Source: Desulforapulum autotrophicum
Lineage (GTDB): Bacteria; Desulfobacterota; Desulfobacteria; Desulfobacterales; Desulfolunaceae
Direction: 5' to 3'
Length of the DNA stretch: 35,654 bases
Assembly: GCA_020723285.1 (NCBI GenBank)
Contig: DYJE01000043.1
Location: 1 to 35,654, forward strand
Below the pieces are notes generated by a model. That model was not told the DNA's origin and did not search any database. It worked only from the letters and a program-made list of their open reading frames with translations. The position numbers and the translations under genes are program-made. Positions 18,993 to 26,284 of the stretch are shown here, piece by piece. The stretch's first letter is position 1. The number at the start of each line of letters is the position of its first letter.

Positions 18993-20966
18993 ATGCTCGC
19001 TCAAACGTTTCCTGCTGATTCTCCCCTTGTAAAAGCCTTAGATGAAAAATGTAGAAAAAATCAATCTGCATACTTTGGACTTTTCGTAAAATTAAACACT
19101 TGGGCTGACTCTCAATTGAAAACCGGGAGCGTGATATACAAGCAGATTGACCACGGAATTAGGCATTCCATGGCGCTCCATAGATTCGCCGATAAACTTT
19201 TACACCCCCTTTTGGAAAAAGAAGACCTCAATGAAAAAGAGCTCTTCCTTATGCTTTCATCTATTTATCTTCACGATATCGGAATGCAGATTGGTTGGGA
19301 GAACCACCTGAAAATTAATAAAACTCGGGATGAACTGAGTTCTGAAGATAAAGATAAATTAAGAAAGCACCACGCATCGGTTACGGGAGCTATCATTCGT
19401 TCATTTCCTGCCGAAAACAGTCCTTATAAAGCCTTTATCGATTCACTCTCAAAAGGTGAGGAAGCCATTCTATGCAAAGATTTGAATGAACATCTTGCCT
19501 ATGTCTGTGAATCCCACAAAAAAGATAAATTGGAATCTAAGCTTAAAGATGAAATACCCCAAAAATTTAAAGATTTTATGCTTAAGGATATAAAGATTGA
19601 TCTCTTGTCTGCCATGCTTCAAATCTGTGATGTCCTGCATATGGACAAATCCCGTTTGATAATTCCATTGTTTGAAGAAACGATAGAAAAAAAGATGAAA
19701 GGTCAGTTTTGCGAAATTGATTATGAAGATGTTGATATTGAGCGGAATTTTCAAAACTATTACATAGATAAAGTCGACGTGGAACAAACTGGAGGCATCG
19801 ATAGTGCCTACGTTATCAGTGTGGATTGCAGTTATCATGCGAACGAGTTGGATCAAGTCAAAGAGAAATTCAAAACCGTATATCAGAATCGGTTGGAAAA
19901 TAAGGATGGATCATGTGTCTCTATATTGAATAATTATGGAATACATTTTTCGACCAGTTATCCGGTAAATGAAGTCGGGTCTGATTCTACGAAGTCAGAG
20001 TACATTGATTTTAAGAGCGTAAGTGCTCAAAAAAACAATGATTCAAAAGACGAAGAAAATCCAGGGAATAAATCGTTCACCGAACCTCCGCTTGATGGAA
20101 TAAAGCATGAAGATGAAACCAAAGGTCCGAATGACGAAGTTCTTACGAAAATTCGCGACAGACTTCACGAACTGTTTGAAGATTCAGACCTGAGTGTTTT
20201 GAAAGAATCGTTGATTCGTGAATGGCGGAAATTAAATCCAGGCATAGAACCTCCAACGCTGGAAGACATCCTCATCGGTTATGGTGATGACGCCGTTTAT
20301 CAGTTGACTGTGGGGTTCCGTGACAGTTTGAACGAAATGAGTAAACATAAATACAGCCCAAACAATAAAACATTATGGGACAAAGCCCTCGTGATACTTG
20401 GCCAGATAGTTTTGTTGTCCCTGAATTATAAACTGGTTACGGATCAAGTCGGAAACCAAGAAAAGCTGAGTGGGATTATAAAATCTCTGCCTGTTACCAA
20501 TACATTGGAACTTGAATCACTTTTTGCAGCGTTTCTTGATACATATCCAAGGCTTTCAGTTCAAAAGACTGCAAGTCGGCCATGTATTGTCGGGGAAAAC
20601 GGAATTGATCACACCCCGGAAGGCGGCAACTGGACTGATGTAGATCCTGTGCTTGAATTTATGAATGTTTTGTGGGTCAAAATATTTAGAGCATCCTCCC
20701 CAAAACCCATTTCGCCCTATGACCAGGATTTACTGAGAGAGGCTATAAAAACAGAAAACCGTGAAAACAAGAATATCTATATCGTTGTGAACAGCAATGA
20801 TCATCCTTTGAGAAATGAGGCTGTCTGCCAAAAAGTTAAAGAGGCGCTTTCAATCCATGTGTTGATCATGAATACGGCGGATTCCAAAAGGGTCTTTGTT
20901 GTCTCAACACCCAAAATGGAAAACGATCTGATCCATTTTTTTAAATTAAAACCGATACCGGAGTAA
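18993..20966 (+). CDS. HD-domain protein of a MoxR-vWA conflict-type operon
   Basis: A 657-residue soluble protein. Its N-terminal 220 residues form an HD-superfamily metal-dependent hydrolase: His58 (GIRHSM), His94-Asp95 (IYLHDIGMQ), His126/127 and Asp213 (ICDVLHMD) give the expected metal ligands. Substrates of this family range from nucleotides to cyclic nucleotides. A beta-containing segment follows to about residue 325, then a low-complexity acidic linker (about 330-380), a helical region (385-500) and a C-terminal alpha/beta part; I do not recognise the last two. The ATG has AAAGGAG eight bases upstream. Only three bases separate its stop from the MoxR ATG, so it belongs to that operon. 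Its DNA is far more AT-rich than the neighbours: 19681-19740 has 18 G/C, against 41 in 21121-21180. It is probably the sensor or toxic enzyme of the system; that is inferred. Confidence 0.8.
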   Translation: MLAQTFPADSPLVKALDEKCRKNQSAYFGLFVKLNTWADSQLKTGSVIYKQIDHGIRHSMALHRFADKLLHPLLEKEDLNEKELFLMLSSIYLHDIGMQIGWENHLKINKTRDELSSEDKDKLRKHHASVTGAIIRSFPAENSPYKAFIDSLSKGEEAILCKDLNEHLAYVCESHKKDKLESKLKDEIPQKFKDFMLKDIKIDLLSAMLQICDVLHMDKSRLIIPLFEETIEKKMKGQFCEIDYEDVDIERNFQNYYIDKVDVEQTGGIDSAYVISVDCSYHANELDQVKEKFKTVYQNRLENKDGSCVSILNNYGIHFSTSYPVNEVGSDSTKSEYIDFKSVSAQKNNDSKDEENPGNKSFTEPPLDGIKHEDETKGPNDEVLTKIRDRLHELFEDSDLSVLKESLIREWRKLNPGIEPPTLEDILIGYGDDAVYQLTVGFRDSLNEMSKHKYSPNNKTLWDKALVILGQIVLLSLNYKLVTDQVGNQEKLSGIIKSLPVTNTLELESLFAAFLDTYPRLSVQKTASRPCIVGENGIDHTPEGGNWTDVDPVLEFMNVLWVKIFRASSPKPISPYDQDLLREAIKTENRENKNIYIVVNSNDHPLRNEAVCQKVKEALSIHVLIMNTADSKRVFVVSTPKMENDLIHFFKLKPIPE

Positions 20967-20969
20967 CCC

Positions 20970-21950
20970 ATGCTGAACATAAAACCCAATGAAATCATGA
21001 CCATTCCCGCCACAGGGTCATGGCCTGAAACGAAACATGTGTTTGAAGAAAAGGGCATCTGGGCCGTGAATGCGGCGTTGACCGCAGAGCGTCCGCTTTT
21101 GATCCGGGGTGAACCGGGCATCGGCAAAAGCCAGCTGGCGCGGGCTGCGGCCCATGCGCTTGGTCGGGCGTTCATTTCCGAAGTGGTTCATGCAAGGAGT
21201 GAATGCCAGGATCTTCAGTGGCTTTTCGACGCCCTGGCGCGGCTTGGGGAAGCCCAGACCCTTGGGGTGACGGGCAAGGAGGTGGATGTGAAAACGGCCC
21301 TTGATCCACTGAAGTATCTGAGTCCGGGGCCGTTGTGGTGGACGTTCAACTGGGAAACAGCGGAAAAACAGTCTCGAACCAGTATGAACGGGGTGAGAAA
21401 ACCTGAAAAACCTGACGGATGGACACCTGAAAAGGGAAGCGTTCTGCTGATCGATGAAATTGACAAGGCCGATGCGGATCTGCCCAACGGACTTCTGGAA
21501 ACCCTGGGAAACGGGGCGTTTACCGTGCCGTATCTGGATCGGCCGGTGAAACTGGGTGAGAATGTCCCGCCGCCCCTTGTGGTGATCACCACCAATGAAG
21601 AACGGGAACTGCCGTCCGCCTTTATCCGGCGCTGTCTTGTTCTTCACATGAAGCTGCCGGGCGAAAAAGGCACACTGATGGAATGGCTGAGCGAACGGGG
21701 CCGCATTCATTTTGGAGACGCATGCAGTCCGAAGGTCCGGCAGAGAGCTTCGGAAATGCTGTGGAATGACCGGCAGGACGCTGAGAAAGGGAACCACCCG
21801 GCACCGGGTCAGGCGGAATACCTGGATATCCTGAGAGCCATCAAAGGCATGGACGAGGGACGGCCCGCGAATGAAGGAATCCAGCTGAAACACCTTGAGA
21901 TGATCGGCGATTTCGCCCTTAAAAAATACCCGGATGACAACAGGGCATGA
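20970..21950 (+). CDS. MoxR-type AAA+ ATPase
   Basis: A 326-residue AAA+ ATPase of the MoxR/RavA-like group, which act as chaperone-like remodellers together with vWA-domain proteins. Walker A is GEPGIGKS (47-54), Walker B LLIDEIDKAD (Asp162, Glu163), sensor 1 is VVITTNEE (about 204-211) and arginine-finger candidates are Arg220/Arg221 in AFIRRC. The lid follows to the C-terminus. Between Walker A and B lies an insert containing GPLWWTFNWETA, reported in conflict-system MoxR proteins as well as here. It overlaps the next ORF by ATGA, so it is translationally coupled to the vWA/FGE protein, its likely partner. GC content is similar to the chromosome backbone, unlike the HD gene. Confidence 0.92.
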   Translation: MLNIKPNEIMTIPATGSWPETKHVFEEKGIWAVNAALTAERPLLIRGEPGIGKSQLARAAAHALGRAFISEVVHARSECQDLQWLFDALARLGEAQTLGVTGKEVDVKTALDPLKYLSPGPLWWTFNWETAEKQSRTSMNGVRKPEKPDGWTPEKGSVLLIDEIDKADADLPNGLLETLGNGAFTVPYLDRPVKLGENVPPPLVVITTNEERELPSAFIRRCLVLHMKLPGEKGTLMEWLSERGRIHFGDACSPKVRQRASEMLWNDRQDAEKGNHPAPGQAEYLDILRAIKGMDEGRPANEGIQLKHLEMIGDFALKKYPDDNRA

Positions 21951-24682
21951 GGCCTTCCATGGGGATAAACAACAGCCATTATCCGTTTTCCGGCCGTGCC
22001 GATCTGCTCCGTTTTCTGGCCTGTCACGGCAAAGCGGGCCTTCACGCCATGGCGGAATTCGCGGGGTATGAGCTCAGGGAAAAGGAAAAAAAGTCCGAAC
22101 CGGATGAAAAGCCCGTGGATTTTGCGTCAGAGGTGGCTGTGACAACCGCCACGAAACACACCTTTGTTGCACCGGTTGAAAGCAGAAACTTCTGGTATGT
22201 GTCGGAACACCGGGTCAAGAAAGTGGAGGAAAGCACCATTGAGGCTCCTTCATGGACGCACAAAACCCCGGAAAACCCCATTTTTGGAAATGACGAAATC
22301 AAGACGGATTACACAGCTCCGTTGCCGCAGCCCATTCCCCTGGTGGCATGGTCAAGGCTCTGGCCGTTTCTCAGACGTTCCCTCGGTGCCGTGAGGCAAA
22401 GCCGGAACCTCGATATGGCGCGCTTCACGGAAACTATTTCAAACCTCAAACCTTTAAAGAAAATCCCTTTTACATCCCGGTTCGGCTGGGATCACTCCGG
22501 TTGCCTGATCTTTGATTTCGATGCGCGCCTTCTGCCCATTTGGGGCGACATCAACCGGCTTCACGGCGGCATTGAAAAACTCCGGGGAAACTCCGGCCTT
22601 GCCGCATACAGGCTCGATGACGGACCCGAAGGCCAATTTCGAAAACGTGAACGAAACCATCACGGAAAGATCGATCCCGATGTGGCGTTCAGGCTCCCGG
22701 AACCGGGAACACCGATGTTGATCGTCTCGGACCTGGGCTGTCTGGAGCCCACGGGCACCCGGAAACGTCAATGGCTGTCATTCGGGAAACGGATGAAACG
22801 GTCCGGTATTCGCCCGGTGGTGCTGACCCCGTGCCCGCCTTCCTGTTGGGATGACGATGTGTTAAGCCACTTTGCGCCGGTGTGGTGGGATAGGGGAAAC
22901 CGTTCATTCAAAGTCAGGCCTGTCAGTCACGGGTTTTCGAAATCATCGGTGGATGCGTTGAAAACAAGGGAGATGAAGACGGGGCGTCTTCTTTCGCTTT
23001 TGTCTCCCGCCATCCGGGTTGAACCGGAACTTTTAAGGGCCATGCGAATGTCGCTGTCGTGCGCGGAAGCGGATGCGTCAACGGAGATCCTGGCCTGGAA
23101 CCATCCCTCGGTAGAGCGATCCTACACCGCCTGGACCTTTGATGTGAAAAAAGTGGAAACCTTATGGGGTGAATTCAGAAAAGAGCCGGAACAGCGAAGA
23201 AACAAGGCGGTTTCCCTCATTGAAAAATACCATGGTCATTTGTCCGGGGCCGTCCGGTTCGAGGAAAAACTCTATTCGGATTTCCTGACCGGCGAGACTC
23301 CCGGCTGGACCGAAGCCTTTATTCAAAAATTTTTCAGAACCCTTGACGACCCCTGGTTTTTCAATCAGGAAAATATCCGAAAGTGGTTTCAGCGCTTCAC
23401 CCGGAGGATGCACCCCGATGTCTGGCCACTGATCACCGCTCTTTCAGCCTGCTGGCTAAAGGCCAATCTTGAGGGCTGGAAAACCGGAACCGTCACGCCG
23501 CCCGAGGGCGTGGATGTCGTGGAAGCCATAAAAACACTGCCTCAAAAAGAAGCACCGGAAACCTACGTCATCCGTCAGGTGGGTGAACACCTTGTGATTA
23601 AAGGTGCAGGAACGGAAGACAGGTCTTCGCCGTTTGAAACCGGCAGTTTTGTGGCGACGGTTTTAACGCGCCAGTCCTGCATCACCCTGGAACATACCGA
23701 AGCCAAAACCAAACCGCTTCAGCACGATTCGGTCACATCATTTTCCTTGCCGTCAGCAGGCCCGGTATTCCTTTCAACGGACATGGACCACATCAGGCTG
23801 AATACGGTGAGAAAATTATCCTGTGCATCGGTTATGGGCCGGGACAGCCGGGGGCTGTACATCCGGCTGGATGATGCCGGTGATTCAGAGCGCATAGACT
23901 GGCCGGAATGGGCGGATCGGGTTGGATGCGATGAATACGGGCTTTATGCGGAATTTATTGTTGAAACCGTCACCCAGCGGATGCGCTGGATCAGGCCGGG
24001 GACGTTTAGGATGGGCTCACCTGAAAATGAACCGGAAAGATCAAAAAATGAACGACAGCATCGAGTCACGTTGACCCGTGGCTACTGGCTTGCGGATACG
24101 GCCGTAACTCAATCCTTATGGGAAGCCGTGTGGATGGGTAATCCCAGTCGGTTCAAAGGAAAAGTCCGCCCTGTTGAAAAAGTCAGTTGGAATGATTGTA
24201 TGCTTTTTATCGAGAATATCAACGAGCTGAAGCCAGGCCTTGATATCCGGTTGCCCACGGAGGCCGAATGGGAATACGCCTGCCGTGCGGGAACGGAAAC
24301 GCCCTTCAGCTTTGGCAGGAATATCACGCCGGAGCAGGTAAATTACGACGGGAATCACCCGTATGCCAAAGGGGAAAAAGCGAAATACCGGAAAGAAACG
24401 GTTGAGGTTAAATCGCTTCCGGCCAATCCCTGGGGCTTGTACGAGATGCACGGGAATGTGTGGGAATGGTGTTCTGACTGGTACGGTGACTACCCTGAAG
24501 GTGTTGTTGACGATCCTCATGGTCCTGAACACGGCGTTAACCGTGTGCTACGCGGCGGTTCCTGGGTCGGCTACGGCGGGGACGTCCGTTCCGCGCTCCG
24601 CTTCAGGGACGAACCCGGCTTCCGTGACAACTTTACCGGTTTCCGTCTCGCCCGAGGTCAGAAGGAAGGCGGAGCCGAATAA
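21947..24682 (+). CDS. vWA-like protein fused to a C-terminal FGE/C-type-lectin domain, putative DGR target 1
   Basis: A 911-residue protein. Residues about 180-300 look like a von Willebrand factor A fold: CLIFDFDARLLPIW (strand with Asp190/Asp192/Arg194, a degenerate MIDAS), LIVSDLG (258-264) and SGIRPVVLTPCP. The middle (300-660) is unrecognised. Residues 679-905 form a formylglycine-generating-enzyme (SUMF1/FGE-sulfatase) domain with MRWIRPGTFRMGSPENEPER, RLPTEAEWEYACRAG and NPWGLYEMHGNVWEW. The catalytic cysteine pair of true FGE is missing from the GGSW segment, so this is a binding rather than an oxidising domain. That segment is the hypervariable block (24563-24637). MoxR coupling suggests ATP-driven control of an effector or receptor. 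ATG 21947 overlaps the MoxR stop; an in-frame ATG at 21959 is an alternative start. Confidence 0.85.
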   Translation: MRPSMGINNSHYPFSGRADLLRFLACHGKAGLHAMAEFAGYELREKEKKSEPDEKPVDFASEVAVTTATKHTFVAPVESRNFWYVSEHRVKKVEESTIEAPSWTHKTPENPIFGNDEIKTDYTAPLPQPIPLVAWSRLWPFLRRSLGAVRQSRNLDMARFTETISNLKPLKKIPFTSRFGWDHSGCLIFDFDARLLPIWGDINRLHGGIEKLRGNSGLAAYRLDDGPEGQFRKRERNHHGKIDPDVAFRLPEPGTPMLIVSDLGCLEPTGTRKRQWLSFGKRMKRSGIRPVVLTPCPPSCWDDDVLSHFAPVWWDRGNRSFKVRPVSHGFSKSSVDALKTREMKTGRLLSLLSPAIRVEPELLRAMRMSLSCAEADASTEILAWNHPSVERSYTAWTFDVKKVETLWGEFRKEPEQRRNKAVSLIEKYHGHLSGAVRFEEKLYSDFLTGETPGWTEAFIQKFFRTLDDPWFFNQENIRKWFQRFTRRMHPDVWPLITALSACWLKANLEGWKTGTVTPPEGVDVVEAIKTLPQKEAPETYVIRQVGEHLVIKGAGTEDRSSPFETGSFVATVLTRQSCITLEHTEAKTKPLQHDSVTSFSLPSAGPVFLSTDMDHIRLNTVRKLSCASVMGRDSRGLYIRLDDAGDSERIDWPEWADRVGCDEYGLYAEFIVETVTQRMRWIRPGTFRMGSPENEPERSKNERQHRVTLTRGYWLADTAVTQSLWEAVWMGNPSRFKGKVRPVEKVSWNDCMLFIENINELKPGLDIRLPTEAEWEYACRAGTETPFSFGRNITPEQVNYDGNHPYAKGEKAKYRKETVEVKSLPANPWGLYEMHGNVWEWCSDWYGDYPEGVVDDPHGPEHGVNRVLRGGSWVGYGGDVRSALRFRDEPGFRDNFTGFRLARGQKEGGAE
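24563..24637 (+). other. Hypervariable block 1 (DGR variable-region-like)
   Basis: Twenty-five codons that differ at 16 codons (26 bases) from the matching block at 25892-25966, whereas the 75 bases upstream differ at 12 bases and the 39 bases downstream are identical. Ten of the 16 differing codons change only at the first and/or second base, and most pairs can be derived from an AAC or AAG template codon (for example GGC/AAC, CTC/AAC, TTC/AAC). Adenine-directed mutagenesis by a DGR produces this pattern. It encodes the ligand-facing loop of the lectin fold. No template repeat was found in the window. Confidence 0.72.
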
Positions 24683-24691
24683 GGGAAAGAG

Positions 24692-24734
24692 GCATGCCGG
24701 ACAGACAGAGCGGAGCGGCGTCGGTCAGGCATGC
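24692..24734 (+). other. Conserved hairpin downstream of variable block 1
   Basis: A 15-base left arm GCATGCCGGACAGAC (24692-24706) pairs at 13 of 15 positions with the right arm 24720-24734 around a 13-base loop. A homologous structure follows the second FGE gene at 26020-26061, with compensatory base changes. No T-run follows, so it is not an ordinary terminator. Hairpins just 3' of the variable region help target DGR retrohoming in known systems. Confidence 0.65.
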
Positions 24735-24763
24735 CGGAGGCCGAATCTAAACAGGATAACGAT

Positions 24764-24841
24764 ATGAAATATCAGTTTTTTACCATAACGGCCCTTGAGT
24801 TTGAATAGGCTCAGGATGATTTGAACCGGTTTCTTGCGTAA
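24764..24841 (+). pseudogene. Decayed small ORF resembling a DGR accessory protein
   Basis: An ATG with AGGAT upstream opens MKYQFFTITALEFE, then an in-frame TAG (24806-24808), then AQDDLNRFLA, then TAA (24839-24841). Intact proteins beginning MKYQFFTIPAL and continuing to LNRFLxSHR are, from memory, encoded between target gene and reverse transcriptase in many DGR loci (the HRDC-like accessory type). Two stops within 26 codons and loss of everything after RFLA mark it as a relic. It sits 80 bases after a variable-region gene, exactly where the accessory gene would stand. Confidence 0.5.
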
Positions 24842-24916
24842 CGCGCCGGTTATGTAAATTGATATTTTCAGTATGTTGAGCCTTTTTTCTTTTCATGATT
24901 CGAAGAAGATGCGGCG

Positions 24917-25067
24917 CGTAGGTCGGCTTGAGGTACGAAAGCCGACGGGCGGTGGTTATGGATCCATCGGTGATTGTTATCTTTTGGGGTTATTTGATTT
25001 TTCAACCGTCGGATTATTTTAAGGATGGGGGCATTTGTCGGCTTTCGTTCCGAGAAGCCGACCTACG
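24917..25067. repeat. Paired inverted REP-like element, copy B
   Basis: The left arm 24917-24950 starts CGTAGGTCGGCTTGAGG; the right arm 25031-25067 ends AAGCCGACCTACG and is its inverted copy. Each arm can itself fold (GTCGGCTT with AAGCCGAC). It belongs to the same family as the element at 11985-12265; here the spacer is 80 bases. It lies between the two FGE genes, just after the decayed accessory ORF. No gene was found in the rest of 24842-25174. Confidence 0.7.
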
Positions 25068-25174
25068 AGAGATTGCAGTGGGTTTATGGCTGGAAACGAT
25101 GAGAATGGCTCATAATCGTATTTCCGAACGCCTGTCGTTAGGGTTCTCTCTAAAACAAGACAATAAAAGGATAA

Positions 25175-26008
25175 GTGAATTCCTTGGAACAGACTGTTCA
25201 AATACATTCCACAGAACCGGACGTTTTTCCCATGGACTGGGCCCGTGACTGGGGTCAGGATGCTTACGGTTACTTTATGGCGTTTACCGTCTACGGGGTC
25301 CGGCAGTGTTTCAGGTGGATCAGGCCCGGTGAATTCATGATGGGTTCGCCTGAAAATGAGCCGGAAAGATTTGGTGATGATTGGCAACACCCCGTGACCC
25401 TGACCCGCGGGTTCTGGCTTGCGGAGACGGCTGTAACGCAAGATTTATGGGAAGCGGTGACGAAAGAAAATCCCAGCGGTTGCAAAGGAAAAAACCGGCC
25501 TGTGGAAACGGTCAGCTGGGAGGATTGTGTGGGATTTATTCAAACCCTCAACGACTTGAAGCCGGGTCTTGATCTCAGGTTGCCCACGGAGGCGGAATGG
25601 GAATACGCCTGCCGCGCGGGAACAAAAGACCCGTTCAGTTTTGGCCGGAACATCACGCCGGATCAGGTGAATTACGATGGAACTATGCCGTATGCCAAAG
25701 GGAAAAAAGGAAAATTCCGGAACGAAACCGTTGATGTCAAATCGCTTCCGGTAAATCCCTGGGGCTTGTACGAGATGCACGGGAACGTGTGGGAGTGGTG
25801 TTCTGACTGGTACGGTGACTATTCTGAAGGTGAAGTTGTTGATCCCCGTGGTCCTGAAAACGGCGATTACCGTGTGCTGCGCGGCGGTTCCTTTCTTAAC
25901 TACGGCATGAACGTCCGTTCCGCCAACCGCAGCTGGAACGAGCCCGGCAACCGCTACAACAACTTCGGTTTCCGTCTCGCCCGAGGTCAGAAGGAAGGCG
26001 GAGCCTGA
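25175..26008 (+). CDS. FGE/C-type-lectin domain protein, putative DGR target 2
   Basis: A 277-residue protein consisting of little more than the FGE-sulfatase fold: CFRWIRPGEFMMGSPENEPER near residue 47, RLPTEAEWEYACRAG, NPWGLYEMHGNVWEWCSDWYGDY and the terminal RVLRGGSF...GFRLARGQKEGGA. It is a close paralogue of residues 660-911 of the vWA fusion upstream, and the last 13 codons are identical in DNA. The cysteines that catalyse formylglycine formation are absent, so it is probably a ligand-binding protein. The start is GTG at 25175 with AAAAGG five bases upstream. No signal peptide is visible, so it is cytoplasmic. Its variable block keeps many AAC codons. It is separated from the operon by a repeat element and probably has its own promoter. 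Confidence 0.85.
   Translation: MNSLEQTVQIHSTEPDVFPMDWARDWGQDAYGYFMAFTVYGVRQCFRWIRPGEFMMGSPENEPERFGDDWQHPVTLTRGFWLAETAVTQDLWEAVTKENPSGCKGKNRPVETVSWEDCVGFIQTLNDLKPGLDLRLPTEAEWEYACRAGTKDPFSFGRNITPDQVNYDGTMPYAKGKKGKFRNETVDVKSLPVNPWGLYEMHGNVWEWCSDWYGDYSEGEVVDPRGPENGDYRVLRGGSFLNYGMNVRSANRSWNEPGNRYNNFGFRLARGQKEGGA
25892..25966 (+). other. Hypervariable block 2 (DGR variable-region-like)
   Basis: The 25-codon counterpart of 24563-24637. It contains seven AAC codons, the codon preferred in DGR templates because its two adenines can be randomised without making stops. The boundary is sharp on the 3' side: the next 39 bases, beginning GGTTTCCGTCTCGCCCGAGG, are identical in both genes and would serve as the initiation-of-homology segment. 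Confidence 0.7.
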
Positions 26009-26019
26009 CAGCCGGAAGG

Positions 26020-26061
26020 GTGTGCCGACAGACGGAGAGGAACGGAGTCGGTCTGGCGCAC
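26020..26061 (+). other. Conserved hairpin downstream of variable block 2
   Basis: Left arm GTGTGCCGACAGAC (26020-26033) pairs with right arm GTCGGTCTGGCGCAC (26047-26061) with one bulge, one mismatch and one G-T pair, around a 13-base loop. Compared with the hairpin at 24692-24734, a C-G pair has become T-A and an A-T pair has become G-C, so the fold rather than the sequence is preserved. No gene was found from here to 26474. Confidence 0.62.
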
Positions 26062-26284
26062 CCCATGTTGATCGCATGTGAAGTTTTTTTTGGCTGTTTA
26101 AATCTGTTCCGATTCATGCCGGAGTCCCTGCCGGGAGCCAACCCCTCTCTTCGCTGGGGCAGGCTGTTTTGAAAACGTTTCACAAAACAGGTTACGGGTT
26201 TTATTCCAAATGAACGGCCTTGTTTGATTGATCTTTATTCAGGCTGGAATCGCCATTCTGCCGCCGTATCTCTGCCCAACCCGT

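What the first reader, a model, noticed from the sequence alone, without database searches (positions are those of the whole stretch)
24692..26061. Conserved hairpin after both variable blocks, with compensatory base changes
Hairpins at 24692-24734 and 26020-26061 have the same 13-base loop length and similar arms, and lie 55 and 54 bases past the variable blocks. Between them one C-G pair has changed to T-A and one A-T pair to G-C, keeping the pairing. No T-run follows, so terminator function does not explain them. In studied DGRs a hairpin or cruciform at this place promotes retrohoming; those have shorter loops, so this may be a variant.
Basis: partly seen in the sequence, partly recalled or inferred. 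Interest (0 to 1): 0.72.

Follow-up and report, generated by a model that had tools for sequence, protein, structure and literature searches.

The report
Hairpin marks of a lost mutator
Two DNA hairpins behind two hypervariable immune-like genes match the landing signals used by gene-diversifying retroelements, but in this genome the retroelement itself appears to be lost, and the hairpins resemble a long, GGA-centred form seen in related loci.

Summary
The hairpins are real (H1 24691-24735, H2 26018-26063), and so are the two compensatory changes: all 8 outer pairs survive five substitutions (chance about 0.005). The link to a diversity-generating retroelement (DGR) is supported. Four related loci share the tandem target genes; two (G046, G133) hold reverse transcriptase (RT) and template repeat (TR) between them.

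Corrections. (1) The "13-base loop" has GGA at its exact centre. Across 42 template-proven variable repeats (VRs) from 31 loci, a hairpin tipped by GRA or GRNA follows the VR significantly in 21 of 42, against 2 of 32 TR sides. (2) The locus looks like a relic. No DGR RT, TR or TR-flank RNA was found in the 97%-complete draft. An accessory-gene stub with stops and a genome-wide repeat stand where those genes should be. The VRs differ at 8 of 80 non-adenine sites (proxy TR), against 0-3 of 80-103 in TR-bearing loci. (3) H2's central tip cannot close (A·A), as relaxed constraint would give.

Known kind, new structural variant. A conserved RNA beside the TR was found on the way.

The parts
24691..24735 (+). 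Hairpin H1: 8-bp outer stem, 1x1 mismatch, 3 bp, 1x1, 3 bp, 13-nt purine-rich middle centred on GC-GGA-GC
   Evidence: GRA/GRNA test E -14.0, p 0.007; GCGGAGC at 24710, GAGCGGAGCGG at 24708
26018..26063 (+). Hairpin H2: 9-bp outer stem with one T-G, 3 bp, 1x1, 3 bp, 13-nt middle GGAGA-GGA-ACGGA whose central GGA cannot close
   Evidence: the hit (p 0.013) uses an off-centre GGA; GAGAGGAACGG at 26035
24551..24656 (+). Variable repeat VR1; VR-end block 24638-24655
   Evidence: A-site test with proxy TR; VR end found only twice in the genome
25880..25985 (+). Variable repeat VR2; VR-end block 25967-25984
24668..24676 (+). Short GGC-GGA-GCC element just after VR1, inside a stretch identical in both genes; sits nearer the place of the G046 hairpin GTCCGGC-GGA-GCCGGAC
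   Evidence: only 3 bp, function doubtful
25997..26005 (+). Same short GGC-GGA-GCC element after VR2
21947..24682 (+). Target gene 1, 911 aa, C-terminal FGE-sulfatase (C-type-lectin-like) domain
   Evidence: Pfam PF03781, E 2e-45
25175..26008 (+). Target gene 2, 277 aa, FGE-sulfatase domain
   Evidence: Pfam PF03781, E 9.7e-48
24764..24862 (+). Remnant of the HRDC-type DGR accessory gene, stops at codons 15, 26 and 33
   Evidence: 25-residue BLASTP match to the G046 accessory protein, 14 of 25 identical, E 9e-8; reading frame; HRDC in the G046 protein
24917..25076 (.). Genome-wide palindromic, MITE- or REP-like repeat pieces (24917-24946, 25004-25076) where RT and TR would be expected
   Evidence: 81 matches in the own genome, the window's own included; 40 of 111 candidates scored
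20970..21950 (+). MoxR-like AAA ATPase gene
   Evidence: PF07728, E 1.3e-10
18993..20966 (+). HD-CE domain gene
   Evidence: PF24391, E 3.5e-20

Best explanation
H1 and H2 are the DGR target-site hairpins of two paralogous DGR target genes in a conflict-type gene cluster. In an intact DGR, mutagenised cDNA copied from the TR replaces the VR, and a hairpin or cruciform just past the TR-VR homology promotes homing (shown experimentally for phage BPP-1, PMC3240598; inferred here). In many related loci this hairpin has a freely varying stem, sometimes a bulged or purine-rich inner part, and a GGA or GRNA tip. In this genome the accessory gene, RT and TR have been lost and a palindromic genome repeat lies in their place, so retrohoming in cis has stopped and VRs and hairpins are drifting. 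Shown: hairpins, VR signature, the missing parts in the draft, the remnant. Inferred: target-site function, and that the loss is real rather than an assembly gap.
For: A-site signature of VR1/VR2, 18 of 27 against 8 of 80. Tandem FGE targets with the DGR cassette between them in G046 and G133. GRA/GRNA-tipped hairpins after 21 of 42 proven VRs against 2 of 32 TR sides (Fisher p 4e-5); centre GRA/GRNA in 15 of 42 VR sides, 1 of 32 TR sides, 20 of 420 shuffles. H1 and H2 both fit GAGxGGAyCGG; GAGGGACGA has 9 hits in 740 kb of these loci, 6 just after a VR. Loss: only a group II intron RT found; no DGR RT at the thresholds used; no TR end; no TR-flank RNA in window or genome; accessory remnant; repeat insertion. 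Drift at non-A sites 8 of 80 against 0-3 of 80-103 in 14 pairs of TR-bearing loci. Phage BPP-1 as positive control shows GCGGGGCC-GAAA-GGCCCCGC right after its VR.
Against: Half of the proven VRs (21 of 42) have no significant hairpin of this class. H2's central tip is not closed; its hit uses an off-centre GGA, and its best centre is GAA, one base off. Covariation inside this hairpin rests on two copies. The genome is a draft of 92 contigs. The proxy TR comes from another genus, so some of the 8 drifted sites could have been adenines in the lost TR; low drift in TR-bearing loci is partly due to my acceptance rule (at most 4 non-A mismatches to the TR). The GRA/GRNA class was fixed after GGA had been seen, though GRNA and GRA are in print; GAGGGACGA is post hoc.
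Confidence: 0.74

Rival explanations
1. The two targets are still diversified in trans by a DGR that lies in the unassembled few percent of the genome, or in some strains of the population.
For: The genome is 97.16% complete in 92 contigs. Doré et al. report targets diversified in trans and strains with and without RT (PMC10907252, passages). VR1 and VR2 keep a clear A-site signature.
Against: No RT, TR end or TR-flank RNA in the assembly. Eight non-A differences between the VRs, six at third codon positions, where 14 pairs in TR-bearing loci show 0-3. H2's tip is broken.
Confidence: 0.15
2. The hairpins act in the mRNA, as 3'-end stabilisers or weak terminators, and their place behind VRs is secondary.
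For: They fold well as RNA and lie right after stop codons; T8 lies 20 nt past H2.
Against: The terminator scan calls neither; no Rfam match up to E 1. In related loci the hairpin tracks VRs and not TRs and some lie inside the coding frame (G046 target 1). The tips match stable DNA mini-hairpins.
Confidence: 0.07
3. The two hairpins are alike only because the genes arose by duplication, and their pairing is chance inheritance without selection.
For: Only two copies in this genome; the compensatory signal rests on five substitutions; H2's tip pair is broken (and sequence).
Against: Chance of keeping all 8 outer pairs about 0.005; fold z-scores; the same kind of centre in unrelated stems of other loci.
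Confidence: 0.04

Closest known systems
Target-site hairpin/cruciform of the phage BPP-1 DGR (Guo et al. 2011, PMC3240598; passages seen)
   Same: Place just past the VR, GC-rich stem with free sequence, conserved purine tip, present on the VR side. H1 and H2 start 34 and 32 nt after the likely homology end; the phage examples lie at 4-34 bp.
   Different: Phage hairpins have 7-10 bp stems and 4-nt GRNA loops. H1/H2 have 8-9 bp outer stems with mismatched inner stems and a 13-nt purine-rich middle centred on GGA.
Nanoarchaeal DGR hairpins with GRA trinucleotide loops (Paul et al. 2015, PMC4372165; passages seen)
   Same: 3-nt GRA tip, as in H1 (GGA) and in many related loci.
   Different: Those lie within the target gene; H1/H2 follow the stop codon, have longer composite stems, and the RT is missing.
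Degenerate DGR loci of Thiohalocapsa PB-PSB1 (Doré et al. 2024, PMC10907252; passages seen)
   Same: DGR targets of conflict systems, MoxR-type ATPase nearby, RT or TR replaced by MITE-like repeats.
   Different: The words hairpin and cruciform do not occur in that main text; here accessory gene, RT and TR are all gone at the locus and no other DGR was found in the genome.
Extraordinarily stable GNA/GNNA DNA mini-hairpins such as GCGAAGC (Hirao and co-workers, as described in PMC4686876; passages seen)
   Same: GCGGAGC (H1 centre) and GCGGTAGC, GCGGCAGC, GCGAAGC in related loci are a GNA or GNNA loop on two G-C pairs.
   Different: That work is on short synthetic DNA; no paper in the library held both 'diversity-generating retroelement' and 'mini-hairpin'.

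Membership tests
Diversity-generating retroelement, complete | DGR-type reverse transcriptase | tested here: not met
   PF00078 finds two adjacent pieces on C28, one with the group II maturase domain; DGR RT queries: no match at 1e-30 or 1e-40
Diversity-generating retroelement, complete | Template repeat | tested here: not met
   VR-end 18-mer with up to 2 mismatches only at the two VRs; TR-flank RNA model best E 3.05 in the genome
Diversity-generating retroelement, complete | Accessory gene (Avd or HRDC type) | tested here: not met
   Only a remnant with stops
DGR target gene | VR whose variation falls on template adenines | tested here: met
   18 of 27 against 8 of 80 with the G046 TR as proxy; 16 of 25 against 10 of 82 with the G279 TR; own TR unknown
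DGR target gene | C-type-lectin-like FGE domain with C-terminal VR | tested here: met
   PF03781 in both genes; VRs at their ends
DGR target-site hairpin (Guo 2011) | Inverted repeat 4-34 bp past the VR | tested here: met
   34 and 32 nt, with the homology end set by analogy with G046
DGR target-site hairpin (Guo 2011) | GC-rich stem of 7-10 bp with a 4-nt GRNA loop | tested here: not met
   Outer stems of 8 and 9 bp fit, the loop does not: 13-nt middle centred on GGA, closable in H1 only
DGR target-site hairpin (Guo 2011) | Required for retrohoming | not testable with these tools
   Needs a homing assay
Intrinsic terminator | GC stem followed at once by a T run | tested here: not met
   T8 only 20 nt past H2, none after H1

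The most novel reading that the evidence does not exclude
Chromosomal DGRs of this group use a second kind of target-site element: a long DNA hairpin with a free stem, a purine inner loop or 5' bulge, and a GNA/GNNA mini-hairpin tip (GCGGAGC or GAGGGACGA type). It is read as a DNA shape by the homing machinery and stays visible as a fossil after RT and TR are gone, so it can be used to find former and orphan DGR targets.
Probability: 0.33. Interest if true: 0.62.

Novelty: new variant of a known kind. Interest (0 to 1): 0.47.

Why it matters
How a DGR tells recipient from donor has, to my knowledge (recalled), been worked out experimentally mainly in one phage. A structural variant shared by a set of chromosomal, immune-type DGRs, with tips that match known ultra-stable DNA mini-hairpins, gives a concrete and testable physical hypothesis (DNA shape rather than sequence) and a search handle for targets that have lost their retroelement. 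A relic locus also shows what happens to hypervariable sensors once diversification stops.

Tried and rejected
Other FGE genes of the genome as further hairpin copies: five of six places were tested and none carries it. Close relatives for direct covariation of H1/H2: a DNA query with VR end plus hairpin matched only the window's genome among 146, so covariation inside this hairpin rests on two copies. Viral contigs: 80 of 161 FGE-relative loci fetched, their downstream stretches listed and not used in the final counts; the RT query found no relative there. The one genome-contig scan gave one locus, not used. Terminator and Rfam readings rejected. A first hairpin test on 23 VRs was widened to 42. 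Short arm matches at C79 and C69 were read; by eye they have no matching second arm.

Sampling and dropped rows: 45 loci besides the window were scanned for TR-VR pairs (24, 21); 31 entered. The other 14 are L131, L133, L181, L183, L186 (its VR repeats one of L185), L191, L192, L198, L252, L256, L263, L267, L269, L270. The script stopped at its own time limit; of the loci left over only L198 was scanned later. One search dropped one duplicate VR (L186) and two with too little sequence behind them (L189, L268). VRs of one locus are not independent: 16 of 31 loci have at least one significant VR side, 2 of 31 a significant TR side. The motif GAGGGACGA was defined on the same data it was counted in.

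Full report
What is in the sequence. H1 and H2 are as described: matching arm layout, a 13-nt middle and two compensatory pair changes. With flanks they fold better than nearly all of 200 shuffles, as DNA (z -3.45, -2.50) and as RNA (z -4.41, -2.74); bare H2 is weaker (z -2.14). In the outer eight pairs five substitutions separate the copies and all eight pairs survive, with a chance of 0.005 under random placement. Against this, a pair next to the centre is C-G in H1 and A·A in H2.

What surrounds it. Upstream lie an HD-CE gene and an AAA_5 ATPase gene, and the hairpins follow two FGE-sulfatase-domain genes. Among the best protein matches, four loci, in G098, G046, G067 and G133, have a long and a short FGE gene in tandem behind an ATPase-like gene (ATPase judged by eye). 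In G046 an HRDC accessory gene, an RT and a TR lie between the targets; in G133 an RT and a TR do. The G046 RT carries LPIGALTSQ; that this is typical of DGR RTs is recalled.

The window genes look like DGR targets. With the G046 TR as stand-in, VR1 and VR2 differ at 18 of 27 template-adenine sites and 8 of 80 others (Fisher p 2.7e-8); with the G279 TR, 16 of 25 and 10 of 82. The 300 nt upstream of the VRs differ at 43 sites, 25 of them at third codon positions.

The DGR appears to be gone. A PF00078 search of the own genome finds two adjacent RT pieces on C28, one with the group II maturase domain. DGR RT queries find nothing at E 1e-30 or 1e-40. The 18-nt VR end, which a TR would share, occurs only in the two VRs. 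A covariance model of the RNA beside TRs has no match up to E 1 in the window and a best E of 3.05 in the genome. The first 25 codons of the accessory gene are recognisable, with a stop at codon 15 and further stops at codons 26 and 33. Beyond it lies a palindromic repeat with 81 matches in the genome, its own included. This resembles degenerate loci of Thiohalocapsa, where MITE-like arrays replaced RT or TR (PMC10907252, passages). VR pairs of TR-bearing loci differ at 0-3 non-A sites of 80-103 (14 pairs), partly by my acceptance rule; the window pair differs at 8 of 80, six at third codon positions.

The hairpin family. TR-VR pairs with nearly only adenine mismatches were kept for 31 of 45 scanned loci. 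In the 115 nt after the VR, a hairpin with GRA or GRNA tip beats shuffles at p<=0.05 in 21 of 42 VRs and in 2 of 32 TR sides (Fisher p 4e-5). Where the best 3-4-nt-loop hairpin reaches -6 kcal/mol, its loop is of that class in 17 of 25 VR sides and 2 of 16 TR sides (p 0.001). When the tip need not close, the centre of the best hairpin is GRA/GRNA in 15 of 42 VR sides, 1 of 32 TR sides, 20 of 420 shuffles and 0 of 5 other FGE genes of this genome. H1 scores in both tests (p 0.007). H2 scores too (p 0.013), but through an off-centre GGA, and its best centre is GAA, one base off. The words GCGNAGC or GCGNNAGC occur in 18 of 42 VR sides and 1 of 32 TR sides. GAGGGACGA has 9 hits in 740 kb (both strands), 6 of them just after a VR. 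H1 and H2 both read GAGxGGAyCGG.

Inner parts. A 2-nt 5' bulge three pairs below the tip is seen in L149, L187, both VRs of L195 and two of three in L253. A GGA/GGA inner loop is seen by eye in L188 and L253. These are shared shapes, not a proven rule: 21 of 42 VRs have no significant hairpin, and by eye 6 of 8 VRs with T-rich downstream sequence are among them.

Physical reading. DNA hairpins with GNA or GNNA loops on two or more G-C pairs are unusually stable (PMC4686876, passages). The GCGGAGC-type tips have that form, which fits a role as DNA. Guo et al. (PMC3240598, passages) showed for BPP-1 that stem pairing and loop sequence matter and that the structure forms in supercoiled DNA. The GRNA consensus is theirs; 3-nt GRA loops are reported for nanoarchaeal DGRs (PMC4372165, passages). 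The step from stability to recognition is inference.

Function now. Most likely none in cis: without RT and TR the hairpins would be fossils, and H2's centre has already lost its closing pair. Rescue in trans cannot be excluded with a draft genome.

Literature limits. Searches in an open-licence library. The large DGR survey of Wu et al. 2018 was not held, and Guo et al. cite unpublished data that inverted repeats nearly always follow VRs. So the long GGA-centred form may be known to specialists.

Noticed in passing
L180:10907-11016, L188:5472-5581, L184:4443-4552 and nine other TR-bearing loci (alignment A1): A conserved, partly covarying RNA-like element directly 3' of the TR (CTCA, stem with RGAT-like loop, TGACC, ATCC.G.CCC stem-loop GGGCAAAAAG, GCTGGTAG). 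A covariance model finds it at E below 1e-7 in 9 further places of 36 sources; no Rfam match at gathering threshold in the two loci tested. Perhaps the TR-RNA part that the RT needs.
   Followed up: partly
window 24917-24946 and 25004-25076: Palindromic repeat pieces with 81 matches in the genome (the window's own included), a REP- or MITE-like family.
   Followed up: partly
L009:3684-4574 (G000:C28:40133-40503): Broken group II intron reverse transcriptase, the only RVT_1 match of this genome.
   Followed up: no
L017 (G000:C48:224344-224577): Short FGE C-terminal fragment with a VR-like end (...GGIRLALTPGQ), possibly a remnant of another target gene.
   Followed up: no
L131 7511-9249 (G098) and L133 8037-11867 minus strand (G067): Two more tandem FGE pairs with no RT between them; their second targets keep GGA-tipped hairpins (p 0.007 each), the first targets a weak one (G098, p 0.04) or none (G067). 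Possibly independent relics.
   Followed up: partly
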